Source of the DNA: a virus
Reading direction: 5' to 3' (one strand)
DNA: 31,600 bases
IMG/VR virus record: IMGVR_UViG_3300020470_000121
Coordinates: 1 to 31,600 of that record
Of this stretch, positions 2,596 to 23,149 are shown piece by piece. A program made the position numbers and the translations under genes. A model generated the notes under the pieces. The model was not told the DNA's origin. It made no database searches and worked only from the letters and a program-made list of their open reading frames with translations. Numbering within the stretch: position 1 is the first letter of the stretch; the number at the start of each line of letters is the position of its first letter.

Positions 2596-3441
2596 CTATG
2601 GTTCGGGTTCCCGACTCGTCATCTGTTGTGGAGTATCCTGTTTCTGTCTAGGATCTCCTCCAGCAACACGACCAAGATACGGATCATAATCAGTGATCAT
2701 TTCTATACTGATATCCGATCCACGAGTTTCCCATAGTTCTCTAAGCCCATTGTGACTTCCTCTATGGAATATTTCAATATGTTCTGGATGAATAGATGAT
2801 CCCAATTCAATCTTGTATAAGAAGATAGGACATGCATATGAACATCCAGAATTATAGATCAGATCATCAGCAACAGGTCTTGGTTTAACTCCATTGTCCA
2901 GACGGTACTTATCCGTACCTTTTACGTGCAATCTAAGTAACTTCTCTGCATGATGTCTTGTGATAACATAACATGCGGTGGAGAAATCATTTACAAATCT
3001 CTTATGTACATTTACATGCAGTTCGCCAGGGCAAATGACTGCAACCTGTACTAGATCCCAATCATATGGGACTCTAGCCATGAACTGTCTCCAAGTAAAC
3101 GTCCAATACTTAGCGATACTAATATCACAATCATCTTCCATGATGACTGCACTAGGAGCATCGGTCTCTTCTACAAAGTGTTTAAGTGCTTTAAGATGGG
3201 AAGTAACACAACCAATTTCTCCAGGCGAAACATTCTCTGGGTACTTACCCACAATGATATCACTTAGATCATCACCAGTAACAGGTCGTCCATCATAAGC
3301 AGAGATGCGATGGTAATTTTCTATCTCCCAGTACTTTAGTTGATCCTCCATCCATGCCATTCTCTCTGGTTCTTCGTCCAGATTAATGATATAAAGAGGT
3401 CCAAAGCCTTTTAATTTGTAGGCTGATTTATTCTTATCCAT
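2596..3441 (-). CDS. glycosyltransferase family 25 (LPS-biosynthesis type)
   Basis: A 281-residue protein of the GT25 family, which adds sugars to lipooligosaccharide or collagen-type acceptors. It shows the family order: an N-terminal PLYIINLDEEPERM strand and loop, RISAYDGR, the SPGEIGCVTSH motif (72-82), and the acidic metal site VIMEDD (about 99-104). It then has a YVITRHHAEKLL region. I start at the ATG at 3441, which overlaps the upstream stop as TAATG; an in-frame start 15 bases earlier would lie inside the upstream gene. Last gene of the sugar operon. The sugar donor cannot be told from sequence; galactosyl is common in the family. Confidence 0.85.
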   Translation of the reverse strand: MDKNKSAYKLKGFGPLYIINLDEEPERMAWMEDQLKYWEIENYHRISAYDGRPVTGDDLSDIIVGKYPENVSPGEIGCVTSHLKALKHFVEETDAPSAVIMEDDCDISIAKYWTFTWRQFMARVPYDWDLVQVAVICPGELHVNVHKRFVNDFSTACYVITRHHAEKLLRLHVKGTDKYRLDNGVKPRPVADDLIYNSGCSYACPIFLYKIELGSSIHPEHIEIFHRGSHNGLRELWETRGSDISIEMITDYDPYLGRVAGGDPRQKQDTPQQMTSREPEP

Positions 3442-4298
3442 TATTCTTGATACCACCCCTCACAATATACATCCTTAGTATCCTTATCCTTATAGTCTGG
3501 ACCGAACCACATCTTAGGAGCAACTACTGGACCCCTTCCATTCTGTAACCATGCACCCCACCAAGACATTGATGAGTTAGCAATGATTGCACCAGAACAT
3601 AGACTCATGATGCAGAGATCAACAAATGGTTCATAAGATCCATCAGGATACTTATCAGTTGGTTCTGATACAAGGAACCTATCATCAGCAAAGAACTCTT
3701 GTTCCTTAACCCACTCAGGAGAATCAGAACAAACAACTATAGGTTGATCTTCAGGGAAATGTTTTAATGCCCTTTCATAATACTCTACAGGTTGTGGTGG
3801 ATGTTGTGATGAACACTCAGTATATGCCCACTTGAATCCTCTTACGTCTGTAAGATTTGGATCTCCTCTTCTTACGTGTAAGAATAATGGTGCCTCATCT
3901 AATGAGTCTACCATCTCTTTACAAGGAGTCAGAATAGAATCATGAAAGGTAAAGTCCTGACGAATAATATTTTCTATATTCTTGAACCACTTCTCACTCT
4001 GGAAGAATCCAAAAAGACTTACATCATTTGGGCACATTGAATGAAGAACAGGATCAAAGTGGTAATGTTTTTCCATAACCACAGGAGCATGACCATTATC
4101 CAATATGAATTGATTCATTGGTTTCAATGAATCTAATGTAAAGGCCCTTCCAAGACTATAATTATCTACTCTTTTTGAATTGAATGGTGGAATACAAAAA
4201 TCATATCCACGACTTGCAGCAATACCTCTAACGGCAGCATACTGAAACATCTGGTTACCTAGACGACCTAGGTTTCCTAACTCGTTAAAGGCCAGCAT
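3441..4298 (-). CDS. GT11 fucosyltransferase-like glycosyltransferase (copy 1)
   Basis: A 285-residue GT11 (alpha-1,2-fucosyltransferase) family protein. GRLGNQMFQYA is at 11-21, the GDP-sugar-binding motif HVRRGD at 141-146, and the C-terminal motif ANSSMSWWGAWL at 240-251. All three are nearly canonical, making this the least divergent of the three GT11 copies in the window. Family members move L-fucose from GDP-L-fucose to galactose; GDP-L-galactose is a close analogue of that donor. It overlaps the upstream gene by 14 bases and the downstream gene as TAATG. Family membership is near certain; donor and acceptor are unknown. Confidence 0.9.
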   Translation of the reverse strand: MLAFNELGNLGRLGNQMFQYAAVRGIAASRGYDFCIPPFNSKRVDNYSLGRAFTLDSLKPMNQFILDNGHAPVVMEKHYHFDPVLHSMCPNDVSLFGFFQSEKWFKNIENIIRQDFTFHDSILTPCKEMVDSLDEAPLFLHVRRGDPNLTDVRGFKWAYTECSSQHPPQPVEYYERALKHFPEDQPIVVCSDSPEWVKEQEFFADDRFLVSEPTDKYPDGSYEPFVDLCIMSLCSGAIIANSSMSWWGAWLQNGRGPVVAPKMWFGPDYKDKDTKDVYCEGWYQE

Positions 4299-5121
4299 TT
4301 AATTGTTCTCCTCTCATCTTTAAGTAATCTAGTTTCGAATAATATGCCATCAGTTTGTCACGATCTAATCGGCGGATGTACTGCCAAAGGGCATCATTTT
4401 CTTGGAACTTTGGATTGTGATAGTGAGAATTAAATGTCCTACCATGTTCAAAGTGATAGATATCATCATTAACTCTACCAACTTTGAAACCAAATAGGTT
4501 GAGTCGGTAATAAAATTCACAATCCTCTGCTCCCCAAGAGAGAAACTCTTCATTCCAAAGTCCAGCAGATACTTCGCAGGCCTTTGTAATCATCTGGCCC
4601 CATCCAATAGAAGATGGGATTCTAGTAGAACTCTTTTGAACTATATCTAGATCAAAAGTGTTTCCATCAAAGGATGATAAAAACTTATCTAATAGATCAT
4701 CAGAATAATTTACTCCCCATTGGTAGATGCCACACCCAAAAGGATACACAGCATCAGAACCGTGGTCCTTAATAGAAGTGTAAGCAAGTTCAACACTATT
4801 CTTAGGCAGAACAACATCTACATCATGATTATACAGTATTGAAGTCTCAGATGCAACTAAAAGATCATTAAGAATTCTAGTCTTATGAAATAATTTCTCA
4901 TCACTCTCTTCAAATATGTGAACTAGATTATCATCATCCTTCACATACTTATTAATCTGTGGATAGGCAAACTCTTTAAAGACTGACTTCTTATCCTCCT
5001 CTTGGATGATAACTTTTGCCTCTGGATAATTATTGAGTATACAGGTTACCGAAGTAATAACATTACGTAAGCGATCATCTGACTCGATCCTACATGGTAA
5101 TAGGAATGTTAAATCTTTCAT
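4285..5121 (-). CDS. glycosyltransferase, GT-A fold (GT2/GT7-C-like)
   Basis: A 278-residue protein with GT-A features: the N-terminal LTFLLPCRIESDDR strand, the metal-binding DxD in NHDVDVVLP (D100, D102), SWGAEDCEFYYRL (195-207) and a nearby HFEHGR (223-228). The G-A-E-D-x-E/D-F-x-x-R block is the hallmark of the C-terminal domain of galactosyltransferase-like enzymes. It transfers a sugar from a nucleotide donor; donor and acceptor are unknown. The ATG overlaps the upstream stop as ATGA. It sits between GT11 copies 1 and 2. Confidence 0.8.
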   Translation of the reverse strand: MKDLTFLLPCRIESDDRLRNVITSVTCILNNYPEAKVIIQEEDKKSVFKEFAYPQINKYVKDDDNLVHIFEESDEKLFHKTRILNDLLVASETSILYNHDVDVVLPKNSVELAYTSIKDHGSDAVYPFGCGIYQWGVNYSDDLLDKFLSSFDGNTFDLDIVQKSSTRIPSSIGWGQMITKACEVSAGLWNEEFLSWGAEDCEFYYRLNLFGFKVGRVNDDIYHFEHGRTFNSHYHNPKFQENDALWQYIRRLDRDKLMAYYSKLDYLKMRGEQLNAGL

Positions 5122-6023
5122 TCTTCTGGTGTCACTGGGGAGGGATCATTATGAATCTTCATCCATCTTTCTGGAATCATATCCTTCATATTATAATGGG
5201 CATATGCAGAACCGAACCAAGGATCGGGTGCAATAATAGGTTTCGTAGGGTTCTTTATCAACCATGCGCCCCACCAACTCAGAGAAGAGTTAGCTATAAT
5301 TCCACCAGAACATAGGGACATAAGACAAAGATCAATGTAAGGTACGGCAGCACCATCTCCGAAGACTTCATAAGATGAATCTGAGAAATGGAACTGGTCG
5401 CCCTGTAACCATTCCTGTTTCTTACACCAATCAATAAGATCTGATACTACTATAATATTAAGTCCTTTTAAAGGCATATTTTCTAATGCCTGTTTATAAT
5501 ATTCTGGTTTACATAGAGGATGATATTCCTGAACCATTTGATAGGACCACTTCTCTCCTCTCCTACCAGTTATATTAGGACTACCTCTACGAACATGTAA
5601 GAAGATACACTTCTCTCTTCCACCTAAACTATCAACGAACTCCTTGCAAGGCTCCAAGTAACAGTTGCGGAAAGTAAAATCATCTCTAATACTGTCAGCA
5701 ATATTCTCAAAGTATCTTTCTGTTTGGAAGTTGCCTGAGAAGTTAGTATTATCCTCACATCTTTCATAGATATCCTCATTGAAATGCATGTCACGGTACT
5801 CTACCTTCTTATGAAGGAAAGGTTCACCAGTATTCTTTTCAAGATTACAATTTGGTAGATTGAATGCTTCAAACAATCCATAGTTATCTAATCTATCTGC
5901 ATCAGGGCCAGGAACCACCCAATCAAAATGTCGATTTGCAGCGACACCACGTACAAAGGCATACTGAAACATCTGGTTACCCAGACGACCTTCATTACCC
6001 AATCCCTGAAATGTAATAGCCAT
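5118..6023 (-). CDS. GT11 fucosyltransferase-like glycosyltransferase (copy 2)
   Basis: A 301-residue GT11 protein. GRLGNQMFQYA is at 12-22 and the C-terminal ANSSLSWWGAWL at 244-255. Motif I reads HVRRGS (143-148), where the usual final Asp is replaced by Ser. The gene is coupled to copy 3 by a TAATG overlap and to the next GT by ATGA. It shares the block DLCLMSLC.GGIIANSS with copy 3, more closely than either does with copy 1. The Asp-to-Ser change may alter donor binding or activity, or the copy may have a different specificity. Confidence 0.88.
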   Translation of the reverse strand: MAITFQGLGNEGRLGNQMFQYAFVRGVAANRHFDWVVPGPDADRLDNYGLFEAFNLPNCNLEKNTGEPFLHKKVEYRDMHFNEDIYERCEDNTNFSGNFQTERYFENIADSIRDDFTFRNCYLEPCKEFVDSLGGREKCIFLHVRRGSPNITGRRGEKWSYQMVQEYHPLCKPEYYKQALENMPLKGLNIIVVSDLIDWCKKQEWLQGDQFHFSDSSYEVFGDGAAVPYIDLCLMSLCSGGIIANSSLSWWGAWLIKNPTKPIIAPDPWFGSAYAHYNMKDMIPERWMKIHNDPSPVTPEE

Positions 6024-6883
6024 TATTTACTCCAATCCAATGTGGTCCAGTAGCCTGGAAGAACTTCTGATGTATCTAGGTTTGACATTGCAGACCCAAA
6101 CCATTTATCAGGATTAGGAGCAATGATCTGACCAGTATCATTCTGAAGATAAGCTCCCCACCATGAGAAGGAACTATTAGCAATGATACCACCAGTACAT
6201 AGACTCATCAAGCACAAGTCAACTTGTGGTAACAAAGTATTCTGCATCTTACCAAGACCATCTATAGTTTGGTACTGATACCTGCCATTATTCTCATTGA
6301 AAAGGAACCTATCACTGTCAAAGAAAGATTGTTTCTTACACCACTCTAAGTCATCAGTGAAAACAAAACATGGAGTTTCTTCATCCCAGTGAGATAATGC
6401 CTGTTCAAAATATGATAGAGGTAGGATAGGATGATACTCTTCTCTTCCTATATTATCTGACTGTCTAATATGAAGAAAGATAGGATCGCCATCTATAGAA
6501 TCTATTATCTCTTTACATGGTTTCAAATAGTCATCCTTGAATGTAAAGTCTTCAAGAATCTGATCCTTAATATGGATAAAGTAACTCTCGGTTTGCATAT
6601 AACCATCAAGATTTACTCCATCCGTACAATAAAAAAGACCCTGATCAAAGGCATGAGTCTTTTCTTGAATAGTAATACCAGTGTTATACCCTAGATGTTC
6701 TGGGGTGGCATACTTCATATTAAAAGTTTCAAACAAACCATAGTTATCTTTATGGTTAGTCTCTTCAGGAGGGATCATCCAATGAAACCCATTGTATGCA
6801 GCAATGCCTCTAAGTGAGGCATACTGAAACATCTGATTACCTAATCGACCATTGCTACCAAGGCGATTATAACTTATGGTCAA
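6023..6883 (-). CDS. GT11 fucosyltransferase-like glycosyltransferase (copy 3), TTG start
   Basis: A 286-residue GT11 protein from this start: GRLGNQMFQYA at 12-22, motif I as HIRQSD (138-143), and NSSFSWWGAYL at 236-246. The second Arg of the usual HxRRxD motif is Gln. Start choice: GGAGG lies 8 bases before a TTG at 6883 that overlaps the upstream stop as TTGA. This start places GRLGNQ at residue 12, exactly as in copy 2. A GTG at 6898 is the alternative but contains the Shine-Dalgarno itself. Substrate unknown. Confidence 0.85.
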   Translation of the reverse strand: MTISYNRLGSNGRLGNQMFQYASLRGIAAYNGFHWMIPPEETNHKDNYGLFETFNMKYATPEHLGYNTGITIQEKTHAFDQGLFYCTDGVNLDGYMQTESYFIHIKDQILEDFTFKDDYLKPCKEIIDSIDGDPIFLHIRQSDNIGREEYHPILPLSYFEQALSHWDEETPCFVFTDDLEWCKKQSFFDSDRFLFNENNGRYQYQTIDGLGKMQNTLLPQVDLCLMSLCTGGIIANSSFSWWGAYLQNDTGQIIAPNPDKWFGSAMSNLDTSEVLPGYWTTLDWSK

Positions 6884-8031
6884 AGTTCTATCCTCCACAC
6901 GGGTTCATGAATCTCTTTCCGATTCTTAACAAAGATGATCCGATCATCATAATCTTCAACTAATTCATCTTGATATTCATCAATGACATCATCAAGTTCT
7001 CTGACGTATACGGTGTGTCCTTCTTTCAGCAAGTCTTCAACCAACCTAAATCTAGGACTTTCTACAACCATATCACATCCTACTTTGTATCCAATACTTT
7101 CGATACAAAATGGAAGACCTTCTTTATTCTCATTGATGACATAATCTTTTATGAAGTCTGCATGTGCCTCATTAAAATCATCCGTGACTTTGGGAAGACT
7201 ATACTGTAATCCAACAGAGTCAGCATAGTATCCTAACGCTCTGTTATCACGGGGCAAACAAGGACCACCAAACCCTAATCCATATTTCAAATATTTAGAA
7301 CCAATTCTAGAGTCCTCTCCTATGGCATCAAGGATGTTATCAATCTCATCTCCACAACCAGAGTTGTAAAGAATCTGACCCATCATATTAGCGTAACTAA
7401 TTTTATAAGTAAGGAAACAATTGATTCCAATCTTAGTAATCTCTGCAGCCTTTCTGGACATTGGGAAGAAATTTACTTCACCATCAATGATATCCATATA
7501 GATGGCTTGTATAAGATCAAATCCATCTGGATTATCACCACCACATAAGACCATATCTGCATCTCTCATGTCCCTGATAACAGTACCTTGAGCAACAAAC
7601 TCTGGACTATAGAAAACAGATACTCCTTTATCTCTTAACCGTTCTTGAACTGTATCAGCGTAGCCAGGATTAGTAGTACATCCTATAACAAAAGTCTTCC
7701 CCTCAAGGGTTGGAGCACCATCAAGATCTTCAACTACATCATCAACACAAGAGCAATCATAACTACCATCATCTAAAGATGGAGTAGGAACAAAAGTAAA
7801 AATAATATCCGAGTGACGGATTACATCTTGATTACTTGTAGTAGCCTGAAACTTCTCGCTTCTCATCAAGAGGTCATCGACCTCTGGTTCATTACTAAAA
7901 ATCTCACCATTGTTAAGTTCGCCAACATAATGTTGTCTTACATCAGAAACAATGACATCATGACCTGCTTCTTCACAAAGTAGAGCAAAACAAATTCCAA
8001 GTCTGCCTGCTCCTATCACTCCGATTTTCAT
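6880..8031 (-). CDS. UDP-glucose/GDP-mannose dehydrogenase family enzyme
   Basis: A 383-residue member of the UDP-sugar 6-dehydrogenase family, which oxidises a sugar nucleotide twice with NAD to a uronic acid. The NAD-binding GAGRLG is at 7-12, SPEFVAQGT at 142-150, the AEITKIGIN helix at 196-204, and the catalytic cysteine C258 in FGGPCLPRD (254-262). It is somewhat shorter than typical UDP-glucose dehydrogenases, at the C-terminal NAD-side domain. All catalytic landmarks are present, so activity is likely. The product would be UDP-glucuronate or a related uronate feeding the glycosyltransferases downstream. It could equally be specific for another UDP- or GDP-sugar. Confidence 0.88.
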   Translation of the reverse strand: MKIGVIGAGRLGICFALLCEEAGHDVIVSDVRQHYVGELNNGEIFSNEPEVDDLLMRSEKFQATTSNQDVIRHSDIIFTFVPTPSLDDGSYDCSCVDDVVEDLDGAPTLEGKTFVIGCTTNPGYADTVQERLRDKGVSVFYSPEFVAQGTVIRDMRDADMVLCGGDNPDGFDLIQAIYMDIIDGEVNFFPMSRKAAEITKIGINCFLTYKISYANMMGQILYNSGCGDEIDNILDAIGEDSRIGSKYLKYGLGFGGPCLPRDNRALGYYADSVGLQYSLPKVTDDFNEAHADFIKDYVINENKEGLPFCIESIGYKVGCDMVVESPRFRLVEDLLKEGHTVYVRELDDVIDEYQDELVEDYDDRIIFVKNRKEIHEPVWRIEL

Positions 8032-8034
8032 GAT

Positions 8035-8379
8035 CTAACTGTTTACCTCCTTAGATTTTCTAGTTCTTCTTTTACGTGGTGATTTAGGTTTTGTTAACCT
8101 GTTTGGAGCAAGACCACCTACCCAAGCTTCATTCTCTGGAGTAGTAGGATCATCTTTAATATAATGACCTTTCTTATTTCTTGCTCTGACTGGTTTAGTA
8201 ACCTTAACTTCTTGTTTCTCTTCTTGAACTACAGGTCCTCGGATTACTGAGTCCGTAATGAACTGTTCAACAGGATTACCTGTACAAATCTTTCTTATGT
8301 GGACAACTCTCTCGTTGCCTTCAATCTGATCACTGATAACTTCTATCGTTAGATAGGATGTAGACTCTGGAATTTTCAT
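8035..8379 (-). CDS. hypothetical protein with basic C-terminus
   Basis: A 114-residue protein. The middle holds RNKKGHYIKDDPTTPENEAW, resembling a short KGxxxxDDPxTPxxNEAW motif that I recall from various phage proteins of unknown role. The last 25 residues are Lys/Arg-rich (PKSPRKRRTRKSK), suggesting nucleic-acid binding or a flexible tail. It overlaps nadE upstream as ATGA and ends 3 bases before the dehydrogenase gene. Function unknown. Confidence 0.7.
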   Translation of the reverse strand: MKIPESTSYLTIEVISDQIEGNERVVHIRKICTGNPVEQFITDSVIRGPVVQEEKQEVKVTKPVRARNKKGHYIKDDPTTPENEAWVGGLAPNRLTKPKSPRKRRTRKSKEVNS

Positions 8380-9179
8380 GATTCTCCAAGTTTATATGTA
8401 GGAATTGGTCTCATCTTGTGTTGATTCTGTTTATTAAATTTTTTGTACTGTTCAATAGCCTTCAATTGTTCCTCCGAAAGATCGTCAGGTCTAAAGAATG
8501 GTTCATCAGCTCCAGACTCCATAACCCACTCAAGCATTTCATAAGAAGTACCAAGTTGATCTTCATCTGTTCTCTGATCATCCCACAGTCCATCAGTAGG
8601 AGCTGCGTCAATAATCTCTGGAATTAATCCAAACTCTCTTCCTAACTCCCTAACCTCTGACTTATAGAGGTCAGCAATAGGAGCAATGTCAACACCACCA
8701 TCACCATACTTGGTAAAAAATCCAACACCATAATCCTCTACCTTATTACCAGTACCAACTACTATACCATTACAAGATCCAGCGATCTGATACAAAGTCA
8801 TCATACGTAATCTTGCTTTGGTGTTCGCCTTAGCCAATGGATTAAGAGCAAACTCTATATTACAATCGCCCATCGTGGACATAAATTTAGAATAACTCTC
8901 ACTCAAATCTATCTTAACTGGTTGTACATTACTATATGAATTCTCCAACCAACTTAAATGAGCATCAGAAAGACTCTCCTGTTCGGGATCTTGTTTTAGT
9001 GGCATCCCAACAGCATAAACTTCTAAACCAGTCTTAGCACAAAGAGTAGAAGTAACAGCAGAATCAATTCCACCAGATACACCCACTACTAATTTGTCAA
9101 CTGGGTTCTTATTAATATAATTACAAAGCCACCCTGTAATATTACAGGTTAGAGTAAAGTAATCAGTGATCCTCTTCAT
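8376..9179 (-). CDS. nadE: NH3-dependent NAD synthetase
   Basis: Makes NAD from nicotinate adenine dinucleotide, ATP and ammonia. The 267-residue length fits the short ammonia-dependent type, with no nitrilase domain. The ATP pyrophosphatase P-loop SGGIDS is at 35-40, followed by KARLRMMTLYQIA, VVGTGNKVED, FFTKYGDGGVDIAPIADLYKS and PTDGLWDDQRTDED, all family landmarks. It overlaps the heme oxygenase gene by 17 bases upstream. In this island it may supply NAD for the sugar-nucleotide dehydrogenase and epimerases, or support host metabolism in general; both are inference. Confidence 0.92.
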   Translation of the reverse strand: MKRITDYFTLTCNITGWLCNYINKNPVDKLVVGVSGGIDSAVTSTLCAKTGLEVYAVGMPLKQDPEQESLSDAHLSWLENSYSNVQPVKIDLSESYSKFMSTMGDCNIEFALNPLAKANTKARLRMMTLYQIAGSCNGIVVGTGNKVEDYGVGFFTKYGDGGVDIAPIADLYKSEVRELGREFGLIPEIIDAAPTDGLWDDQRTDEDQLGTSYEMLEWVMESGADEPFFRPDDLSEEQLKAIEQYKKFNKQNQHKMRPIPTYKLGES

Positions 9180-9870
9180 TGTCTAATCCTAATTTTTCAG
9201 TTACAAAACCACAAAGAACTTGCATGAAAGCCTTAAAAGAATCTCCTTCAAGTTCACTAAACATATACATGTTCAATCTAAAAGCAAAATTAGCTTCAGT
9301 AATAATAGCATTTACCTCATGTTGATCAAGTGGTAAAGTATTAAGAGTGGCACGATAAGATTCTTTGAATGCTTTCTTATCAGTAATATTCTTGAACTCA
9401 TAGAAGTTCAACCCTTCACCAACTGGAAGATCTAAAGCACTCTTTGCAATGTTCTTTAGAATCTGTCCTCCAGACAGGTCTCCTAAGTAACGTGTGTAAT
9501 GGTGTCCGACAAGTAAATAAGGATTGTCTTGTGCCACTTCACGAATACGATTCACATACTGTTGACATGATTCAGTAGGAGTAACTATATTTCTCCAATC
9601 AGGTCCATAATAATATGAAAGATCCTTTGCAAGAGAAGCAGTACGATAGAGTTCTTCATAAGCAAGAGGACCAACCACAGGATGATCCTTTAACTTATCA
9701 ATCTCTTCCTCCATCGCCCTATAAACAAAGTAAAAGTCAGCAAGTAAAGTACGATACTTTTCAGGTTCAAGTACCCCCTTTAAAAATTGACTAACAAACT
9801 TAGTATTCTCTGCGGCAGAGTGAGACTTTTTAGTCCCTTGTTTTATCTGTACCGAAAAATCATCAATCAT
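9163..9870 (-). CDS. ho1: heme oxygenase
   Basis: Opens heme to biliverdin IX-alpha using reduced ferredoxin, the first step toward phycobilins. The 235-residue length matches cyanobacterial HO1. The proximal heme ligand is H17 in GTKKSHSAAE, and the distal helix has GDLSGGQ (130-136) with HHYTRYL just before it. Cyanophages often carry ho1 with a bilin reductase (pebS or pcyA); no such reductase is seen in this window. It is embedded between nadE and a methyltransferase in the sugar island, with an 8-base overlap with the latter. Confidence 0.93.
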   Translation of the reverse strand: MIDDFSVQIKQGTKKSHSAAENTKFVSQFLKGVLEPEKYRTLLADFYFVYRAMEEEIDKLKDHPVVGPLAYEELYRTASLAKDLSYYYGPDWRNIVTPTESCQQYVNRIREVAQDNPYLLVGHHYTRYLGDLSGGQILKNIAKSALDLPVGEGLNFYEFKNITDKKAFKESYRATLNTLPLDQHEVNAIITEANFAFRLNMYMFSELEGDSFKAFMQVLCGFVTEKLGLDNEEDH

Positions 9871-10642
9871 CTTTACGGGTTGCTAAAATAATAGTGTTCT
9901 CATAATCCCTGCCTTCATCGAAGGTAAAGTTTTCTTTAATCTTATCTATGAAATCATTATAATGGAAGTCATTAAAATTGACAAGGTTATAAACAAGATA
10001 TGCATACTTAGAATTAGCCACTAACTTATCAAAATATTCCATCTGAACTTCTATACTACACTCAGATAAAGCATAGTTACTAATAAACAAATCTATATCT
10101 TTAATCTCTTCGTACTCTGTGCATGGAATACACTTTACTTTATCTTTAATATCTGGGAACTGATCAATATATTTCCTCTGCAAAGCAACAACTTCTGGGA
10201 GGTCGATCATAACATACTCATCAAACTCACACACCTTACTAAGAACTCTACATAGTCCTCCATATCCTCCACCCACTTCAACTACTTTACTAATAGGACT
10301 ACCTTCAAGCATGAAAGCCATCTCAAAGGTATTCTTCATATACCTCAAAGTGGTTGGAGAAATAAGACCCTGCAAGCCTGGATACACATGAAGATCTGGA
10401 TTACCATACTTATCATTCTCTTTAAATGATTCAATGTTTTCCCACACAGCATCCTCATTCATATCCTTACAAATGTTTAGATATGTTTGTCCTTGATCTT
10501 TTAAAACATGTTCTAAGATAGTTTTATACTTAGGGTTTGCTTTAAAGTTAGCAAAGGCTTCATCATTTTCAACGGCCTCTGTACATGCAGCAAGATACTC
10601 TACTGCGATTTGATCTTCAGCCTGCCATCCGCTACGTGTCAT
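9863..10642 (-). CDS. SAM-dependent methyltransferase, putative sugar O-methyltransferase
   Basis: A 259-residue class I methyltransferase. The SAM-binding loop is VVEVGGGYGGL (about 120-130), followed by YVMIDLPEV, where the Asp would bind the ribose. The G-G-G-Y-G-G-L-x-R pattern with DLPEV and a later FISNYALSE segment resembles the putative sugar O-methyltransferase group often found in surface-polysaccharide clusters. Its position next to GT10 supports methylation of a sugar. It overlaps GT10 as ATGA. The substrate is inferred from context. Confidence 0.75.
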   Translation of the reverse strand: MTRSGWQAEDQIAVEYLAACTEAVENDEAFANFKANPKYKTILEHVLKDQGQTYLNICKDMNEDAVWENIESFKENDKYGNPDLHVYPGLQGLISPTTLRYMKNTFEMAFMLEGSPISKVVEVGGGYGGLCRVLSKVCEFDEYVMIDLPEVVALQRKYIDQFPDIKDKVKCIPCTEYEEIKDIDLFISNYALSECSIEVQMEYFDKLVANSKYAYLVYNLVNFNDFHYNDFIDKIKENFTFDEGRDYENTIILATRKDD

Positions 10643-11628
10643 ACTACATTACTCCGTTGTGTTCTGAATGGGTCCATTTGTGTGAAATAATTTTTATACA
10701 TGTAGTCTTCAGCGACTCTCATGTTCACGGCAATATCAAAGTTCTCTTGAATAACTTCCTTCTTAGATTCATAATACTCTGGTGTGAGTTTATCCCAAGG
10801 AATATTCTCCCAAGGTTGTCCTTCATCTAAGAATATAATTCCTTCAGGATTAAAGTATTGGGCTACCCCAAGAGTGCCATAATATACTGGTATTGTACCA
10901 CATGCGAAACAATCTGTCAGTTTCTCGGTAAAATACGTTGGATAATTTGCATTTTCACATGCAAAACTGAACATATAGTCAGCAAGGCCTTTAGATTTCT
11001 CTTTTATATCAAGTTCTTGAGGCAATCCCCAACCATATAGATCATCTCCACCATATTTCTGATGGAATTTCTCCACAACTCTTAGTCTTCTTTGATGTCC
11101 AAGAGTATATCCTTTATTGGATGCAATCATTGAGACGAGTTTAGACTTAGTATAGATGGCTCTATCCATTACCCAAGGTGCGGCATTAGACATACAATAA
11201 AGGAACTTACCATCTGGTCCTGATTCCTCAGTTAATCTCTGATCCGCTGTAAAAATTCCATCGACATGTCCTGCGATGAAATCATAATTATCTTCTACCC
11301 ATCTATACTCATTAGGAATAATCTCTCTCGATTCTAACAACCAAATAAATTTTGGATGATCAGAAGCATCCTCCATTACTTGTGGAGCAGAATGATTAAC
11401 ATACAAATTAACCAACCCCATACCGTCTCTAACAAATACAGTATATACTGATCTGTTATTGGCAGAGGTTGATGGATCTAATGAATCATTACAAAATAAA
11501 TTAATAGGAAACTTTTTATCGTCTCCTAATACTGGAATATCAATTCCTTCTGGACTAGACTTTGCACGAAACAAAGCATCCTTCATGTCTTGATGCAGTC
11601 TTTCGGCTAAGTCAGGATCTAGTGGCAT
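10639..11628 (-). CDS. GT10 fucosyltransferase-like glycosyltransferase
   Basis: A 329-residue protein whose C-terminal half carries the GT10 (alpha-1,3/1,4-fucosyltransferase) signature. A K.KLVSMIASNKGY.LGHQRRL region at 161-182 corresponds to the family's K-x-x-x-x-x-x-S-N block. The YFTEKLTDCFACGTIPVYYG block (232-251) corresponds to Y-x-T-E-K-x-x-x-x-x-x-x-G-x-x-P-V-x-x-G. These bind GDP-fucose. Together with the three GT11 genes, it makes four GDP-L-sugar-type transferases in one island. It overlaps the upstream epimerase by 17 bases. The real donor could be GDP-L-fucose or GDP-L-galactose. Confidence 0.82.
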   Translation of the reverse strand: MPLDPDLAERLHQDMKDALFRAKSSPEGIDIPVLGDDKKFPINLFCNDSLDPSTSANNRSVYTVFVRDGMGLVNLYVNHSAPQVMEDASDHPKFIWLLESREIIPNEYRWVEDNYDFIAGHVDGIFTADQRLTEESGPDGKFLYCMSNAAPWVMDRAIYTKSKLVSMIASNKGYTLGHQRRLRVVEKFHQKYGGDDLYGWGLPQELDIKEKSKGLADYMFSFACENANYPTYFTEKLTDCFACGTIPVYYGTLGVAQYFNPEGIIFLDEGQPWENIPWDKLTPEYYESKKEVIQENFDIAVNMRVAEDYMYKNYFTQMDPFRTQRSNVV

Positions 11629-12867: not shown

Positions 12868-12869
12868 AA

Positions 12870-13457: not shown

Positions 13458-14571
13458 TTACCAGTTCCTTCGTTGACGAATTTTCGACCCCTCCAGCCTC
13501 ATCAGCCTTCTGGGAATTGATTTGTTCAGTTATCCAATGGTATGTCTTACGAATACCATCTTCAAGTGATTGAGAATAATCCCAACCAAGTTCCTTACGG
13601 ATTACATCGTTGTTAGAGTTACGTCCTCTAACTCCTAGAGGTGCATCTAATACATGACGTTTAGATACAACCTTACCTGCAACCTTAGCAGCAGTATCTA
13701 CTAGTTGGTTGATGGTAACCATTTCTTCGGATCCGATATTGACAGGTCCTTGGAAGGTTGAGTCCATGAGTCTTCGAGTTGCTTCGATGCACTCGTCGAT
13801 GAAGAGGAAGGATCTTGTCTGCAACCCGTCGCCCCACACTTCAATCGGTCCTCCCACATCTGGGACCATCGCAACCTTTCGGCAGATAGCTGCTGGAGCT
13901 TTTTCTTTTCCTCCGTCCCATGTTCCTTCGGGTCCGAAGATATTATGATACCTGGCAACACACACAGGGATGCCATGATTACGATTGTAAGCCAAGTACA
14001 ATCTCTCTGAAAAAAGTTTCTCCCATCCGTATTCGGAGTCGGGGTTTGCGGGGTATGCTGATTCTTCACGGCAGTCAGGATTATCTGGATCAAGTTGATT
14101 ATGTTCTGGGTACATACAAGCAGAAGAACTATAGAAGATCTTAGTCTTGTTTACTCCCTTAACATCATTAAGTTTCTTTTGTTCCTCCAGAACATTTAAG
14201 TTTATTGTGGCAGAATTATGCATGATATCTGCAGAGTGTTCATCAGTAAAGATGTAACCTGCACCTCCCATGTCAGCAGCAAACTGATAGATCTCATCGA
14301 AGGTATCAATGTATTGAAATGGTACAGAATTATAGAAGTTTTTATAAGGTCCTCTATATTCTAATACACGTTTAACTAAACTAGGATCTCTCAAATCACC
14401 TTGCACAAACTCATGTGCCTCAGTAGGAGAGAAATCTGGATACTTTAAATCTACGCCACGAACCCAGTATCCTTCAGATACTAGCCTCTTTACCATGTGA
14501 CTACCAATAAAACCACCTGCACCCAATACCAATGCAGTCCTTCTAAATTCTGACATTACGCTGTTATTCAT
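13450..14571 (-). CDS. GDP-mannose 3,5-epimerase (plant GME type)
   Basis: Converts GDP-D-mannose to GDP-L-galactose. An extended SDR of 373 residues with GAGGFIG at 17-23. Four active-site positions known from Arabidopsis GME (C145, Y174, K178, K217) are matched here by C152 (SSSACMYPE), Y181 and K185 (YGWEK) and K224 (GGKEKAPAA), all with the same offset of +7. Other shared blocks are RYHNIFGPEGTW, WGDGLQTRSFLFIDEC, GPVNIGSEEMV and GVRGRNSNN. An ATG five codons in (14556) is an alternative start and fits the late promoter at 14585-14592 better, because it leaves a leader. This is a precise assignment by memory of the plant enzyme. Confidence 0.9.
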   Translation of the reverse strand: MNNSVMSEFRRTALVLGAGGFIGSHMVKRLVSEGYWVRGVDLKYPDFSPTEAHEFVQGDLRDPSLVKRVLEYRGPYKNFYNSVPFQYIDTFDEIYQFAADMGGAGYIFTDEHSADIMHNSATINLNVLEEQKKLNDVKGVNKTKIFYSSSACMYPEHNQLDPDNPDCREESAYPANPDSEYGWEKLFSERLYLAYNRNHGIPVCVARYHNIFGPEGTWDGGKEKAPAAICRKVAMVPDVGGPIEVWGDGLQTRSFLFIDECIEATRRLMDSTFQGPVNIGSEEMVTINQLVDTAAKVAGKVVSKRHVLDAPLGVRGRNSNNDVIRKELGWDYSQSLEDGIRKTYHWITEQINSQKADEAGGVENSSTKELVNA

Positions 14572-14584
14572 TTGGAACAGTTCC

Positions 14585-14592: not shown

Positions 14593-14604
14593 GTATCAGA
14601 TAAA

Positions 14605-15342
14605 CTATGATTTCGCAAGTATTTGTACGGTTGGAAACCATCCTAGTTCACATAATTTAGTAGTATCAGCACAGAGTTCATCAGGTTCATTAGGAGTATG
14701 TTCTTTAATAGGTAAATGATCCATGCCCATATGTTTAGCAAGATCAAGTACTGATATAGATTCTCCTGTACCAACATCAATAGTACCAATATATGTACTA
14801 GGAATTAGATAAGCAATTGCTCTGACTACATCATTCACATGAATCCAATCTCTCTTGTGTCTGGTAAGATATGTTGCAGTCTTATCTTGTAACATTCTGT
14901 ATAACATATCAGGTCTACTACCTTCCTCTGACCAGACATTAAAAAATCTCATACCAACACTGTTAGGTGGTGCCATGAGTTCATTTGCCTTCTTAGTTAT
15001 TGCATAAGGATTCTGCCACCACTCATGCGCTCCAGCAGAACTTGCATACAATAATCTAACATTATTCTCTCTACAATAATCAAAGATAGGTTTAGACTTC
15101 TCTACATTATTCTCCCAGAACTTTTCTGGATTATCCACACTGTCTCTTAGTGCAGCATAGGCAGCAAGATGAATGATTACATCATAATGTCTTGCAAACA
15201 TACCAGAAGGACCAACCCAATCAGCAATGTCATCAGGTCTATCTAATCCTTCTACCAAATAACCATAACCTTGTTCATGTCTAAGGTCATTGAATACATG
15301 ACTTCCAATAAAACCTTCATGACCAGTAACTAAAACTTTCAT
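14605..15342 (-). CDS. NAD-dependent epimerase/dehydratase (extended SDR)
   Basis: A 245-residue SDR. GHEGFIG is at 7-13, IIHLAAYAA follows strand 4, the active-site region is YASSAGAH, and YAITK carries the Tyr-Lys pair. A later RDWIHVNDVVRAI matches the R-D-x-[IV]-H-V-x-D block of sugar-nucleotide epimerases. The C-terminus is short relative to the full family, leaving a trimmed substrate domain. It starts as ATGA on the stop of the 2OG oxygenase upstream. It acts on an unknown nucleotide sugar, and is the farthest-upstream sugar gene before the late promoter. Confidence 0.85.
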   Translation of the reverse strand: MKVLVTGHEGFIGSHVFNDLRHEQGYGYLVEGLDRPDDIADWVGPSGMFARHYDVIIHLAAYAALRDSVDNPEKFWENNVEKSKPIFDYCRENNVRLLYASSAGAHEWWQNPYAITKKANELMAPPNSVGMRFFNVWSEEGSRPDMLYRMLQDKTATYLTRHKRDWIHVNDVVRAIAYLIPSTYIGTIDVGTGESISVLDLAKHMGMDHLPIKEHTPNEPDELCADTTKLCELGWFPTVQILAKS

Positions 15343-15905
15343 TTCACAGCCCCAGTATTAACTTGTCTCAAACCCATAGAACCCTGATACCAACCAGTAG
15401 CAATAAATTTATCACTCATAGGAGGATTACCACGATGTATATGTGTGTATCCACCAGGCCATATTAACACTTTTCCTGTCCTTGGTCTAACTTTCATACT
15501 CTGATATAAAAATTCTGTCTCGCCACCCTCAATAACATCATTCAAATATACCATCCATGCCATAGTTCTACTACTAGAATCCCAATTAGTATTCTCTTCA
15601 TGGAAGGCATGATACCCTCCATAAGTTTCAGTATGTTGAAGTAAAGTTACCGAACTTATAAAATTAAAATTAGTGAGGTAATTATATTTGTGAACATATT
15701 CTACAAGACATTGATCAACATGACCCATTAATTCTCTTGCCTCGCCTGGAGAGAAGGCATCAAATCCTATTTGTTTATCTTTAATGTGAACATAATCTCT
15801 AGGAAAGACTTGATCTGATCTCTTAATATAATCAACGATCCATTCACATAAAGAAGTATCTACTGCATCATTGTAGATCCCAATGAAATCAATATATTCA
15901 CTCTT
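15339..15905 (-). CDS. 2OG-Fe(II) oxygenase, prolyl-4-hydroxylase-like (paralogue A)
   Basis: A 188-residue protein. Iron ligands fit H102-x-E104 in YHAFHEEN and a distal His in THIHRGN (H155 or H157); a basic residue for 2-oxoglutarate lies in DKFIATGWY. Further marks are RTMAWMVYLND, GGETEFLYQ and VRPRTGKVLIWPGG. I take the ATG at 15905, which overlaps the upstream stop by 8 bases; a TTG at 15938 would overlap by 41. It is a close paralogue of the next gene upstream: ENFIGIYDD/DFIGIYND, YH.FH.EN..W and NPP.S.K.I.TGW.QGS are shared. The substrate is unknown. Glu replaces the common Asp in the HxD motif in both copies. Confidence 0.85.
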   Translation of the reverse strand, partial: KSEYIDFIGIYNDAVDTSLCEWIVDYIKRSDQVFPRDYVHIKDKQIGFDAFSPGEARELMGHVDQCLVEYVHKYNYLTNFNFISSVTLLQHTETYGGYHAFHEENTNWDSSSRTMAWMVYLNDVIEGGETEFLYQSMKVRPRTGKVLIWPGGYTHIHRGNPPMSDKFIATGWYQGSMGLRQVNTGAVK

Positions 15906-16524
15906 CATTTCTTTCAAACTCACATAATTTCTCTTCAAGAATACCCGCAGTCTGAGTATAACCTAATCCATTAGATCCTTGCCACCAACCTGTAACAATA
16001 TACTTGGTCTTGCTAGGTGGATTACCTCTATGTAAATGAGTGAACCCTCCTGGCCAAATACATATCCTTCCTTCCTTTGGTCTTACCCTGTAACCTTGAT
16101 ATAAAAATTCTGTTTCTCCTCCATCATCATCGGTACTAAGATAGATCATCCAAGCAAGTGTCCTATGTTGAACATTCCAATCAACATTTTCTGCATGGAA
16201 CATATGATATCCACCACCCAAAGGTTCAGTTACCTGTAGTAATGCAGCAGAACTAACAAAATTAAATGTTGATAGGTATGGATAATGCTCTACGTAATTT
16301 CTAAGTGCAGGTTCTAATGCGTTTTGGTACAAAGCCTGAACATCTGGAGCATGAAAACTGTCTAAAACTATCTGTCTATCTTGTATGACAGCCTTATTCC
16401 TCTTCATAACAAAAGAACTTGTCGTAACTATATCTCTCAATCTCTGACAAAATTCTGGAGGAATCATATCATCGTAGATGCCGATAAAATTCTCGACATT
16501 ACGTGGTTCAGTTTGTGTATCCAT
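15898..16524 (-). CDS. 2OG-Fe(II) oxygenase, prolyl-4-hydroxylase-like (paralogue B)
   Basis: A 208-residue protein. H110-x-E112 occurs in YHMFHAEN, with the distal His in FTHLHRG (H163 or H165) and K174 in TKYIVTGWW. RTLAWMIYLS and GGETEFLYQGYRVRPKEGRICIWPGG complete the double-stranded beta-helix pattern. It is adjacent and similar to paralogue A along its whole length, so the pair arose by tandem duplication. It overlaps the third oxygenase upstream by 17 bases. It could hydroxylate protein, sugar or another small substrate. Confidence 0.86.
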   Translation of the reverse strand: MDTQTEPRNVENFIGIYDDMIPPEFCQRLRDIVTTSSFVMKRNKAVIQDRQIVLDSFHAPDVQALYQNALEPALRNYVEHYPYLSTFNFVSSAALLQVTEPLGGGYHMFHAENVDWNVQHRTLAWMIYLSTDDDGGETEFLYQGYRVRPKEGRICIWPGGFTHLHRGNPPSKTKYIVTGWWQGSNGLGYTQTAGILEEKLCEFERNEE

Positions 16525-17167
16525 TTTGTATTTCCATTTTTAAGTAATTAGTACCAACCCCAAACTCACCATCAAGATTATAGTTAAAGGCTATACTATA
16601 TCTATTCTCTTTAGATTTAGATGGTACAACATAATGTTTTAAATGGCCAGGGAATAAAATTAATCCACATTCTTGTGGAGTGAACGACCTTTGAAATGTA
16701 TTCAAATCATCGTAGGTAACCATAGAGAATGACCAATAATTTGTAGTCCAAGTAGGAGCCATTGAGGAGAATATAATATCTCCACCCTTCTCAGGAGTTT
16801 TCAAATAAAAAACCCCAGCAAACATCGTGTTAGTATGATGATGCTTGTGGGTGTAATTGCCTTCTCTGTTTATATTACCCCATGAATTGATTCTTTTCAA
16901 CCCATGTTTCTTTCTATCAATCTGTAAGATCTTTACATACTTATCCATCTCCTTAAAGATCTTATTCTCCAGAACCTTAAGTTCAGGACAAGCAAGAAGA
17001 TCTTTATCTAACTGAGTTGTTTCACCATTTGGTCTTTCAAATATATCATAATCCTGAGCCCAAGGAACACTATCCAAGAAGTCAATCATGGATTTAACTT
17101 CTAATGGGCGGAATTGTAATACAGTCTCATAGACTGGAGTTGGAAATAATAAATGTAGTTCAGCCAT
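16508..17167 (-). CDS. 2OG-Fe(II) oxygenase (2OG-FeII_Oxy_5 type)
   Basis: A 219-residue protein. It begins LHLLFPTPVYE, the typical opening of this family. The metal region NSWGNINREGNYTHKHHHTN has histidines at 107 and 109-111, followed by FAGVFYLKTPEKGGDI. The distal site is LFPGHLKHYVVP (H175/H178) with R189 in ENRYSIAFN. This type is found repeatedly in T4-like cyanophages; its substrate is not known to me. It overlaps DUF1257 by 8 bases. It is not a close relative of the tandem pair downstream. Confidence 0.87.
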   Translation of the reverse strand: MAELHLLFPTPVYETVLQFRPLEVKSMIDFLDSVPWAQDYDIFERPNGETTQLDKDLLACPELKVLENKIFKEMDKYVKILQIDRKKHGLKRINSWGNINREGNYTHKHHHTNTMFAGVFYLKTPEKGGDIIFSSMAPTWTTNYWSFSMVTYDDLNTFQRSFTPQECGLILFPGHLKHYVVPSKSKENRYSIAFNYNLDGEFGVGTNYLKMEIQNGYTN

Positions 17168-19960: not shown

Positions 19961-19978
19961 TTACTGCTCCTAATTGGG

Positions 19979-22412: not shown

Positions 22413-22419
22413 TATTTAG
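22413..22419 (-). promoter_or_regulatory. possible late-promoter-like CTAAATA before the nuclease gene
   Basis: Minus-strand CTAAATAA about 30 bases before the start at 22384, in a 51-base gap. It matches only part of the late consensus. Low confidence. Confidence 0.2.
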
Positions 22420-22435
22420 TTCCAGTAGTTCGATC

Positions 22436-23149
22436 TCATTTGGAAAATCGTTCACGTAATATTTTCCAAGTATCATTATATGTATCTACAGAATGAGCCA
22501 CCCCACCTCTAGATTCAACAGCCTGTGCTAAGGAATAATCATTTCCACCTTCCTTACATCTATCACCAAAGAATTCTATCTTATCATCATCTTCAAAGTC
22601 TCTTAAGATCTGACTCTTATCAGAACCTATTGGTCCAATATCAATACCAGTCTGTCCTCCTAGTGCAACACTTAAGTCTGGAAATTGATCAATCAATCTT
22701 AGTGCTATGAATTTTCTCTCACTGTGTATTTTATTGTAACTAATGTATTCTGCTCTACCAGCAGAAGGGTCTTTACCTCTACCTAAGATACTAAAGTTAA
22801 CTGCGCCAGGTCTTTTCTCAATATGATTTCCATTACGAATCTTCCTAGGAAACTGACTAAAATCTAATTCATCCTGTAAGAATCTTTCTACTTCTTCAGG
22901 AAGTTCCCAGTTATCTCTATAGACATTCTTATCGCCTTCATATACATCACTACCTGAACAATTATAAACTCTCTTTGATCTGTTGTATAAATCCTCACCC
23001 ACTTGCTCTAATGTTTTCTGTCTATCACTACCTGTGACAAGATAAACATCATTCTCCCACGAGAATTTGAGCATGAATGCCCTAAAATCTGGATCAATCT
23101 GACACCTACTAGGAGTCAACGTGCCATCAACATCAAAAATATATTTCAA
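22436..23149 (-). CDS. eukaryotic-type phosphomannomutase (HAD superfamily), TTG start
   Basis: Converts mannose-6-phosphate to mannose-1-phosphate, the precursor of GDP-mannose. The 237-residue protein follows the human/plant PMM order. The nucleophile motif FDVDGTLTPSR has D6 and D8. GSDRQKTLEQVGED, KIRNGNHIEKRPGAVNFSILGR, GGQTGIDIGPIGSDKSQ (167-179), FFGD (193-196) and GGND (201-204) follow. It begins at TTG 23149: the codon just before is an in-frame TAA and no ATG precedes the DVDGT motif, so the TTG start is required. Bacterial PMMs are usually of the unrelated ManB type. It fits upstream of the GDP-mannose epimerase in the same genome. Confidence 0.85.
   Translation of the reverse strand: MKYIFDVDGTLTPSRCQIDPDFRAFMLKFSWENDVYLVTGSDRQKTLEQVGEDLYNRSKRVYNCSGSDVYEGDKNVYRDNWELPEEVERFLQDELDFSQFPRKIRNGNHIEKRPGAVNFSILGRGKDPSAGRAEYISYNKIHSERKFIALRLIDQFPDLSVALGGQTGIDIGPIGSDKSQILRDFEDDDKIEFFGDRCKEGGNDYSLAQAVESRGGVAHSVDTYNDTWKILRERFSK

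What the first reader, a model, noticed from the sequence alone, without database searches (positions are those of the whole stretch)
2596..23149. Candidate phage pathway to an L-galactose (or L-fucose) glycan
PMM and GME are two steps of Man-6-P to GDP-L-galactose, and the same window has four transferases of GDP-L-fucose-using families (three GT11, one GT10). L-galactose differs from L-fucose only by the C6 hydroxyl, and plant fucosyltransferases can use it. No GMD/fucose synthase pair was identified. The glycan may mask the host surface, decorate virions or modify DNA.
Basis: inference. Interest (0 to 1): 0.85.

Follow-up and report, generated by a model that had tools for sequence, protein, structure and literature searches.

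The report
Cyanophage genes for a GDP-L-galactose-type sugar
A marine cyanobacterial virus carries an intact-looking gene for turning the common sugar GDP-mannose into the rare sugar GDP-L-galactose, packed with sugar-attaching enzymes that in related viruses go either with this gene or with fucose genes but rarely with both, so it probably makes an L-galactose-type sugar; related virus clusters were already known.

Summary
The gene calls hold. GME matches Arabidopsis GDP-mannose 3,5-epimerase (E 2e-80) with all six published active-site residues; PMM, three GT11 and one GT10 are confirmed. The window is a fragment of a T4-like cyanomyovirus. Its nearest complete relative, S-SSM7, shares the cluster; no GMD, strong fucose synthase, PF00483 guanylyltransferase or type II mannose-6-P isomerase was found there.

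For: of 94 GME phage loci, 2 have GMD/fucose synthase nearby; of 83 GMD-anchored loci, 3 have GME. Phage GT11 and GT10 sort by accompanying donor genes (10 label changes against 43 shuffled; 3 against 15), more than 7 of 9 other shared families; the window's four lie in GME-only supported sets. Prochlorococcus has GME, a second SDR and ManC in a row. Omega is about 0.09.

Against: 124 of 201 host-family genomes carry GMD, so host GDP-L-fucose is usually available. The GME-linked second SDR (40 of 92 GME loci, 3 of 80 fucose loci) may change the sugar further. PMM lies 8 kb off and is rarely linked.

GME in a cyanophage is already in print (S-SCSM1, 2022). Verdict: partly supported; no chemistry shown.

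The parts
13450..14571 (-). GME: GDP-mannose 3,5-epimerase (GDP-Man to GDP-L-galactose, minor GDP-L-gulose)
   Evidence: PDB 2c59 E 1.7e-80; active-site residues kept in the window and in all 177 aligned sequences that score over 350 bits and are 300 aa or longer, AtGME included
11612..12469 (-). SDR2: second extended SDR, GME-linked; keeps GxxGxxG and Ser/YxxxK, has Met where GME has its catalytic Cys (the listed ORF to 12535 starts at an upstream TTG; the conserved start is at 12469)
   Evidence: 40 of 92 GME phage loci, 3 of 80 fucose phage loci; 48 of 51 copies in loci with GME lie within three genes downstream of GME; 59% identical to the Prochlorococcus gene directly behind GME
14605..15342 (-). 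SDR3: short (245 aa) SDR nucleotide-sugar enzyme, substrate unknown
   Evidence: PF01370 E 2.6e-24; 9 of 92 GME phage loci, 0 of 80 fucose loci
10639..11628 (-). GT10 family transferase
   Evidence: PF00852 E 8.9e-9; its supported tree sets of 8 and 17 rows hold GME loci only
3441..4298 (-). GT11 family transferase a (HVRRGD motif)
   Evidence: PF01531 E 1.6e-15; AlphaFold model pLDDT 96 resembles FUT8, NodZ, POFUT1 and AtFUT1
5118..6023 (-). GT11 family transferase b (HVRRGS)
   Evidence: PF01531 E 5.6e-14; motif
6023..6898 (-). GT11 family transferase c (HIRQSD, second Arg replaced)
   Evidence: PF01531 E 2.7e-19; motif
4285..5121 (-). GT7-C-type galactosyltransferase-like protein
   Evidence: PF02709 24.1 bits, cut-off 23; 34 of 92 GME phage loci, 4 of 80 fucose loci
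2596..3456 (-). GT25 family transferase
   Evidence: PF01755 E 2e-13
6880..8031 (-). UDP-glucose/GDP-mannose dehydrogenase family protein; UDP-glucose dehydrogenases match better
   Evidence: TIGR03026 over cut-off; PDB UDP-glucose dehydrogenase E 1.3e-34, GDP-mannose dehydrogenase E 2.6e-27; 18 of 92 GME phage loci, 0 of 80 fucose loci
9863..10642 (-). NanM-type putative sugar O-methyltransferase
   Evidence: TIGR04371 73.3 bits, cut-off 44
12870..13457 (-). small methyltransferase-like protein overlapping the end of GME
   Evidence: PF01728 E 1.6e-4, below cut-off; 8-nt overlap
8376..9179 (-). NAD synthetase inside the block
   Evidence: PF02540 E 3.4e-52
15339..17167 (-). three 2OG-Fe(II) oxygenases in tandem upstream of the SDR genes
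   Evidence: PF13640 / PF13759
22436..23149 (-). PMM: eukaryotic-type HAD phosphomannomutase
   Evidence: PF03332 E 2.4e-24; PDB PMMs; Asp6, Asp8, Arg15, Arg113, Arg124, Arg132 kept in at least 95% of 82 aligned viral sequences, window included

Best explanation
The cluster is a phage-encoded branch that takes GDP-mannose from the infected cyanobacterium, epimerises it at C3 and C5 with GME to GDP-L-galactose, and hands L-galactose to its three GT11 and one GT10 transferases. The other enzymes of the block (UDP-glucose dehydrogenase, GT25, GT7-C-like protein, sugar O-methyltransferase) add or cap further residues of the same glycan. PMM would raise Man-1-P and so GDP-mannose; the guanylyltransferase is the host's. 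The glycan most likely sits on the surface (LPS or exopolysaccharide) of the infected cell, with virion proteins the next most likely place. Shown: the gene families, intact active sites, gene packing, low omega, and the sorting of GT11/GT10 by donor genes. Inferred: substrate, product, donor of each transferase, acceptor and place.
For: GME: E 1.7e-80 to AtGME and full active site, invariant in 177 of 177 aligned sequences. The Cys/Lys/Arg set is the one that separates GME from fucose synthase (Cys/His/Lys) in a 2022 review (PMC8787198, passages). Of 13 complete GME phages, only S-SCSM1 has GMD over cut-off and a fucose synthase match over 400 bits; both fucose-type controls have them too. 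GME loci with GMD/FCL: 2 of 94; GMD-anchored loci with GME: 3 of 83. GT11: 154 tips, 10 label changes against a shuffled mean of 43; GT10: 54 tips, 3 against 15. Control: observed/shuffled ratio 0.19 and 0.29 against 0.51-0.99 in 7 of 9 other shared families. The 50 listed PDB hits of the GT11a model are all fucosyltransferases (FUT8, NodZ, POFUT1, AtFUT1), at TM-scores of about 0.44-0.54; mouse FUT8 and Arabidopsis fucosyltransferases are reported to transfer L-Gal (section 12 of PMC8787198). Host link: two Prochlorococcus single-cell genomes have GME, SDR2 and a third gene in a row; in AG-347-J14 that third gene is a bifunctional mannose-1-P guanylyltransferase/mannose-6-P isomerase (TIGR01479, 691 bits, cut-off 373) and an exopolysaccharide glycosylphosphotransferase lies 7 kb off. 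Median omega about 0.09 for GME, GT11, GT10, SDR2 and PMM.
Against: Hosts usually can supply GDP-L-fucose: GMD over cut-off in 124 of 201, FCL at E<=1e-80 in 120 of 201 genomes of the host family. GT11/GT10 sorting could partly reflect inheritance of whole clusters; two of nine control families sort as sharply (ratios 0.11 and 0.16), and many rows are near-copies. GT11/GT10 were not detected in 20 of 94 GME loci, some of them short. One search shows a GDP-fucose transferase fold, which does not tell fucose from galactose. GT11c lacks the second Arg of HxRRxD. SDR2 may alter the sugar. PMM is weakly linked (3 of 94). SynMITS9220M01 and Bellamy hold a GMD-like protein at 164-165 bits, far below the cut-off of 415. 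No acceptor or location evidence.
Confidence: 0.5

Rival explanations
1. The GT11 and GT10 enzymes are ordinary fucosyltransferases that use GDP-L-fucose made by the host; GME serves some other transferase of the cluster.
For: GMD and FCL are common in the host family: 124 and 120 of 201 genomes. The GT11a fold matches GDP-fucose enzymes. GT11 also stands behind GMD-FCL in fucose-type phages (second gene downstream of GMD in 27 loci).
Against: GT11/GT10 fall largely into GME-type and fucose-type sets, more sharply than 7 of 9 other shared families; in 26 of 91 GME loci the very next gene is a GT11 or GT10. The three GME-bearing host-family genomes looked at (G001, G002, G017) had no GMD over cut-off.
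Confidence: 0.22
2. GME plus SDR2 make a GDP-L-hexose other than L-galactose. SDR2 would oxidise and re-reduce C4 of the GME product, and the transferases use that sugar.
For: SDR2 in 40 of 92 GME phage loci against 3 of 80 fucose loci, within three genes downstream of GME in 48 of 51, and directly behind GME in two Prochlorococcus genomes. It keeps the Ser/YxxxK redox set but has Met where GME has its catalytic Cys.
Against: 52 of 92 GME phage loci have no SDR2 in the held DNA; S-T4, Sf-CH5, S-SM2, Bellamy, S-CAM9 and others show GT10 or GT11 directly behind GME without it. Substrate of SDR2 unknown; its best PDB hits are UDP-glucuronate decarboxylases at only E 3e-9.
Confidence: 0.2
3. The phage GME acts on a GDP-manno-heptose rather than GDP-mannose.
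For: SynMITS9220M01 carries HddA-like and HddC-like genes near its GME, and S-T4 and Sf-CH5 HldE-like ones, all below the curated cut-offs where tested.
Against: HddA and HddC matches over 80 bits in 1 of 92 GME phage loci and 1 of 80 GME loci from genomes (3 of 80 for HddA at the looser E 1e-10), against ManC in 11 of 80. No such family turned up among the window proteins scanned, and no HddA, HddC or HldE match at E<=1e-10 in the window.
Confidence: 0.05
4. The cluster is filler DNA without function.
For: A 2010 genome paper left this open for the LPS clusters of S-SSM7, S-SM2 and P-SSM2 (PMC3037559, passages).
Against: Median omega about 0.09 and no pair over 0.5 in any of the eight families tested, among pairs of at least 75% protein identity; active sites invariant.
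Confidence: 0.03

Closest known systems
Synechococcus phage S-SSM7 (NC_015287) LPS gene cluster
   Same: Shared genes in the same order from GT25 to PMM: GT25, three GT11, GT7-C-like, UGD, NAD synthetase, NanM, GT10, SDR2, small methyltransferase, GME, SDR3, 2OG oxygenases, PMM. Window proteins 79% (GME), 68% (SDR2) and 55% (PMM) identical.
   Different: S-SSM7 has an extra ORF between GT25 and GT11a, two rather than three oxygenases there, and no heme oxygenase between NAD synthetase and the methyltransferase. Its GME is annotated only as a nucleotide-sugar epimerase and its PMM as hypothetical.
Synechococcus phage S-SCSM1 (Microbiol Spectr 2022, PMC9602691)
   Same: GME together with fucosyltransferase-family genes; the paper names the GDP-L-galactose reaction (passages).
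   Different: Also has GMD, fucose synthase and a mannose-6-P isomerase, none of which was found in S-SSM7.
[quoted passage not shown]
   Same: Active site, and 46% identity to AtGME. MfGM35E was not compared here.
   Different: Plant role is vitamin C and cell wall; the bacterial role was proposed by its authors to be LPS (PMC6678494, passages).
GMD-FCL clusters of cyanophages (e.g. ACG-2014f, S-SRM01)
   Same: Donor synthesis next to GT11, GT10 or other fucosyltransferase-type genes.
   Different: Donor is GDP-L-fucose; their GT11/GT10 fall mostly into other tree sets.

Membership tests
GDP-mannose 3,5-epimerase (GME, GM35E) | Full-length similarity above other SDR families | tested here: met
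   2c59 E 1.7e-80; next family in the PDB E 1.8e-21
GDP-mannose 3,5-epimerase (GME, GM35E) | Ser-Tyr-Lys triad, Cys-Lys acid/base pair and Arg | tested here: met
   All six residues aligned
[quoted passage not shown]
   needs an enzyme assay
Eukaryotic-type phosphomannomutase (PF03332) | Family score over cut-off and two catalytic Asp | tested here: met
   86.8 bits against 22.4; Asp6 and Asp8 kept in at least 95% of 82 viral sequences
GT11 (PF01531) | Family score over cut-off | tested here: met
   57.6, 52.5 and 70 bits against 23.9
GT11 (PF01531) | HxRRxD donor motif (recalled) | tested here: inconclusive
   HVRRGD in a, HVRRGS in b, HIRQSD in c
GT10 (PF00852) | Family score over cut-off | tested here: met
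   35.7 bits against 23.9
L-fucose pathway phage cluster | GMD plus GDP-L-fucose synthase | tested here: not met
   not in the window; in S-SSM7 no GMD match and no FCL match over 94 bits, that one being GME itself; rest of this virus's genome not held
Complete Man-6-P to GDP-L-Gal pathway | Mannose-1-P guanylyltransferase | tested here: inconclusive
   no PF00483 match in S-SSM7; none seen in the window proteins scanned; the window's own genome is only a fragment

The most novel reading that the evidence does not exclude
Cyanophages carry two interchangeable donor modules, GMD-FCL (L-fucose) and GME with or without SDR2 (L-galactose or a new L-hexose), each with its own lineages of GT11/GT10 transferases. 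The GME module, kin to one found in rare Prochlorococcus, would put on infected cells or virions an L-hexose that most hosts do not make.
Probability: 0.35. Interest if true: 0.75.

Novelty: new variant of a known kind. Interest (0 to 1): 0.5.

Why it matters
Large cyanophage LPS-type clusters were described in 2010, and whether they work was left open (PMC3037559, passages). The low omega and the sorting of transferases by donor genes argue that they do, and point to a concrete sugar. GME is rare in the host family (2 of 201 genomes at E<=1e-80), so if the sugar is L-galactose or a derivative, infection would give most hosts a surface they cannot make themselves, which bears on superinfection, adsorption of other phages, or virion properties. 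It would also give natural GT11/GT10 enzymes selected for GDP-L-Gal instead of GDP-L-Fuc.

Tried and rejected
GDP-heptose as GME substrate: considered because of HddA/HddC-like genes in SynMITS9220M01 and HldE-like ones in S-T4 and Sf-CH5; rejected as the general case.

UGD as a GDP-mannose dehydrogenase: the UDP-glucose enzymes match better, which does not exclude the other.

SDR2 or SDR3 as a disguised GMD/fucose synthase pair: 41.8 and 30.1 bits on the fucose synthase model against a cut-off of 500, and no GMD equivalog listed. Pfam PF16363 is over its cut-off for both, but also for GME.

Lack of phage GMD/FCL as proof against L-fucose: rejected.

Specificity columns in GT11: no column separated the two groups cleanly; not used. 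Loss of the second motif Arg is commoner in GME-type GT11 (25 of 103 against 3 of 51), but the rows are related and no weight is put on it.

RNA elements: one chance-level hit in the window. tRNAs: none.

DNA modification as the target: not tested.

L016 (GenBank name Rhodobacteraceae) is a cyanophage contig, 31 of 33 ORFs, and was counted among the 80 'genome' loci. Loci with both donor types were left out of the tree counts (5 GT11 rows) and of the 92/80 counts. ORFs were called mechanically, and gene classes rest on score thresholds that I set after looking at the score lists. The omega pairs were restricted to at least 75% protein identity and dS 0.15-2, which pushes omega down. No FCL match anywhere reached that model's strict cut-off; 'strong' means over 400 bits or E<=1e-80. 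Completeness of the 201 genomes is not told. Whether the GME of G017 is host or prophage was not looked at.
Full report
What is there. The window is a 31.6 kb IMG/VR virus record, all that is held of its genome. Its nearest DNA relatives are T4-like cyanomyoviruses, best S-SSM6a and S-SSM7. On the minus strand, 2596-17555 is a tightly packed block: GT25, GT11a, a GT7-C-like protein, GT11b, GT11c, a UDP-glucose dehydrogenase-like enzyme, a 114-aa ORF, NAD synthetase, heme oxygenase, a NanM-type sugar O-methyltransferase, GT10, SDR2, a 132-aa ORF, a small methyltransferase-like protein, GME, SDR3, three 2OG-Fe(II) oxygenases and a 131-aa ORF. PMM lies apart at 22436-23149.

GME. The protein matches A. 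thaliana GDP-mannose 3,5-epimerase (2c59, E 1.7e-80); the next PDB family scores E 1.8e-21. Ser143, Cys145, Tyr174, Lys178, Lys217 and Arg306 of AtGME are all present, and in all 177 aligned sequences from phages, bacteria and the plant that passed a 350-bit and 300-aa filter. A 2022 review gives Cys/Lys/Arg as what tells GME from fucose synthase, which has Cys/His/Lys (PMC8787198, passages). No GME-specific family is among the listed NCBIfam and PHROGs hits, and phage records mostly call the gene a nucleotide-sugar epimerase or UDP-glucose 4-epimerase; one S-SCSM1 record says GDP-mannose-3',5'-epimerase.

PMM. PF03332 at 86.8 bits; all 15 PDB hits are phosphomannomutases. Asp6, Asp8, Arg15, Arg113, Arg124 and Arg132 are kept in at least 95% of 82 aligned viral sequences. 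Seven phage records hold PMM, among them S-SSM7/S-SSM6a and P-TIM68, which also carry GME; the other two are far relatives at 28%. In viral contigs 9 of 80 PMM loci hold GME and none holds GMD, but only 3 of 94 GME loci hold PMM. Its tie to the pathway is plausible but weak.

The rest of the pathway. Thirteen complete GME-bearing phages and two fucose-type controls were searched whole. GMD over cut-off: only S-SCSM1 and the two controls; SynMITS9220M01 and Bellamy have GMD-like matches at 164-165 bits against a cut-off of 415. Fucose synthase over 400 bits: S-SCSM1 and the two controls, none over the strict cut-off of 500. Mannose-6-P isomerase PF01050: 3 of 15, all GME phages (S-SCSM2R, RB11-B, S-SCSM1). 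Nucleotidyltransferase PF00483: 6 of 15, not S-SSM7. So S-SSM7, the best stand-in for the missing part of this genome, shows no way to make GDP-mannose alone.

Host side. In 201 genomes of the family of a Prochlorococcus genome (G001), GME at E<=1e-80 was found in 2, GMD over cut-off in 124, and a fucose synthase match at E<=1e-80 in 120. The two with GME had no GMD or FCL match at those limits; a third GME-bearing Prochlorococcus genome had no GMD over cut-off. So most hosts can offer GDP-L-fucose, and few can offer GDP-L-galactose. In the Prochlorococcus single-cell genome AG-347-J14, GME is followed directly by an SDR2 homologue and then by a bifunctional mannose-1-P guanylyltransferase/mannose-6-P isomerase (TIGR01479, 691 bits, cut-off 373), with an exopolysaccharide glycosylphosphotransferase 7 kb off (TIGR03025, 300.4 bits, cut-off 295.6). 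A second one, AG-349-P01, has the same GME, SDR2 and a 480-aa gene in a row, which matches that guanylyltransferase. That ties this GME type to GDP-mannose and to surface polysaccharide.

GME against GMD-FCL. In 94 phage loci with GME (window, 13 phage genomes, 80 viral contigs), GT11 or GT10 occurs in 74, is the next gene in 26 of 91, is within the next six genes in 58 of 75, and never among the four upstream genes; GMD or FCL occurs in 2. In 83 loci anchored on GMD, FCL occurs in 74, GT11 in 50, GT10 in 18 and GME in 3. Both kinds of donor genes thus stand before the same transferase families, seldom together.

Do the transferases know their donor? On a tree of 154 labelled GT11 (103 GME, 51 fucose), the label changes 10 times against 43 in shuffles; on 54 GT10 (36/18), 3 times against 15. 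The smallest supported sets around all four window enzymes hold GME loci only (4 and 11, 7 and 9, 5 and 9, 8 and 17 rows); the next set around GT11b, of 27 rows, also holds 6 fucose rows. Nine other families shared by both kinds of locus served as control: observed/shuffled ratios 0.71, 0.99, 0.65, 0.83, 0.51, 0.11, 0.84, 0.52 and 0.16, against 0.19 for GT11 and 0.29 for GT10. Seven of nine are less sorted; two (one seeded on an annotated DegT-type aminotransferase; one on an annotated methyltransferase) are more sorted. So the sorting is above most of the background of shared descent, but not above all of it. These are FastTree trees with near-copies and some long branches; the counts are not independent events.

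Fold. The GT11a model (pLDDT 96) matches GDP-fucose transferases: the 50 listed PDB hits are FUT8, NodZ, POFUT1 and AtFUT1, at modest TM-scores of about 0.44-0.54. By sequence alone no solved relative was found for GT11c. Mouse FUT8 and Arabidopsis fucosyltransferases have been used with GDP-L-Gal (section 12 of PMC8787198), so the fold allows either donor.

SDR2. It occurs in 40 of 92 GME phage loci, 3 of 80 fucose phage loci and, of 80 loci from genomes, in the two Prochlorococcus loci and one cyanophage contig. In 48 of 51 cases it lies within three genes downstream of GME. It keeps the nucleotide motif and Ser/YxxxK but has Met at the place of the catalytic Cys. I infer a C4 redox or epimerase step on the GME product; its substrate is not known.

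Selection. Median omega by a Nei-Gojobori count is 0.08-0.11 for GME, GT11, GT10, PMM, SDR2, UGD, GMD and the GT7-C-like family, with no pair over 0.5. Pairs were limited to 75% or more protein identity, which lowers omega, and only 10 (UGD) and 23 (GT7-C) pairs were usable in the smallest sets; still, filler DNA would not be expected to look like this.

What is known. S-SSM7 and its LPS cluster were published in 2010, with function left open (PMC3037559, passages). [quoted passage not shown] Searches for phage with GDP-L-galactose, auxiliary metabolic genes with 'GDP-mannose 3', cyanophage with fucosyltransferase, with GDP-mannose, and with lipopolysaccharide, glycosyltransferase and epimerase listed no paper whose title or shown abstract start describes GME as an alternative donor module with its own transferases. 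Of the listed papers I read only passages of those cited, and most subscription journals are not in the library.

Verdict. Observation confirmed; interpretation partly supported. GDP-mannose as GME substrate: about 0.85. GT11/GT10 fed by the GME product, changed by SDR2 or not, rather than by host GDP-L-fucose: about 0.7. Plain L-galactose as the sugar transferred: about 0.5. Surface of the infected cell over virion as the place: an inference only, resting on the Prochlorococcus polysaccharide context.

Noticed in passing
window 9163-9870 and 8376-9179: Heme oxygenase and NAD synthetase genes sit inside the glycan block with overlapping ends; in S-SSM7 the NAD synthetase is there but the heme oxygenase is not at that place.
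   Followed up: partly
window 6023-6898 and 5118-6023: GT11c has HIRQSD and GT11b HVRRGS in place of HxRRxD; the HIRQSD form is also in S-SSM7, S-SCSM2R and Sf-FS3.
   Followed up: partly
L003 (SynMITS9220M01) 12822-17503: HddA-like kinase, HddC-like nucleotidyltransferase and an RpiB-type isomerase fused to a nucleotidyltransferase near GME: a possible phage GDP-heptose pathway.
   Followed up: partly
L001 (S-SSM7) 9235-10770 and 12233-12856: Annotated Nol-like carbamoyltransferase and Mom-like DNA modification protein in the same genome region; not looked for further.
   Followed up: no
window 27809-29935: Subtilase-family protein (PF00082, 64.7 bits, cut-off 21.8) on the plus strand; its S-SSM7 counterpart lies between two genes annotated as baseplate wedge tail fibre connectors.
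   Followed up: partly
L016 whole locus: Contig filed under a Rhodobacteraceae MAG is a cyanophage contig (31 of 33 ORFs match cyanophage loci at over 45% identity).
   Followed up: yes
L002 7229-7326 and L013 5893-5979: Annotated wcaG RNAs stand upstream of the GME clusters of S-SCSM2R and S-SCSM1; none was found in the window.
   Followed up: partly
window 23173-24414: 413-aa ORF directly upstream of PMM with 82 lysines and a run of nine; no Pfam match.
   Followed up: partly
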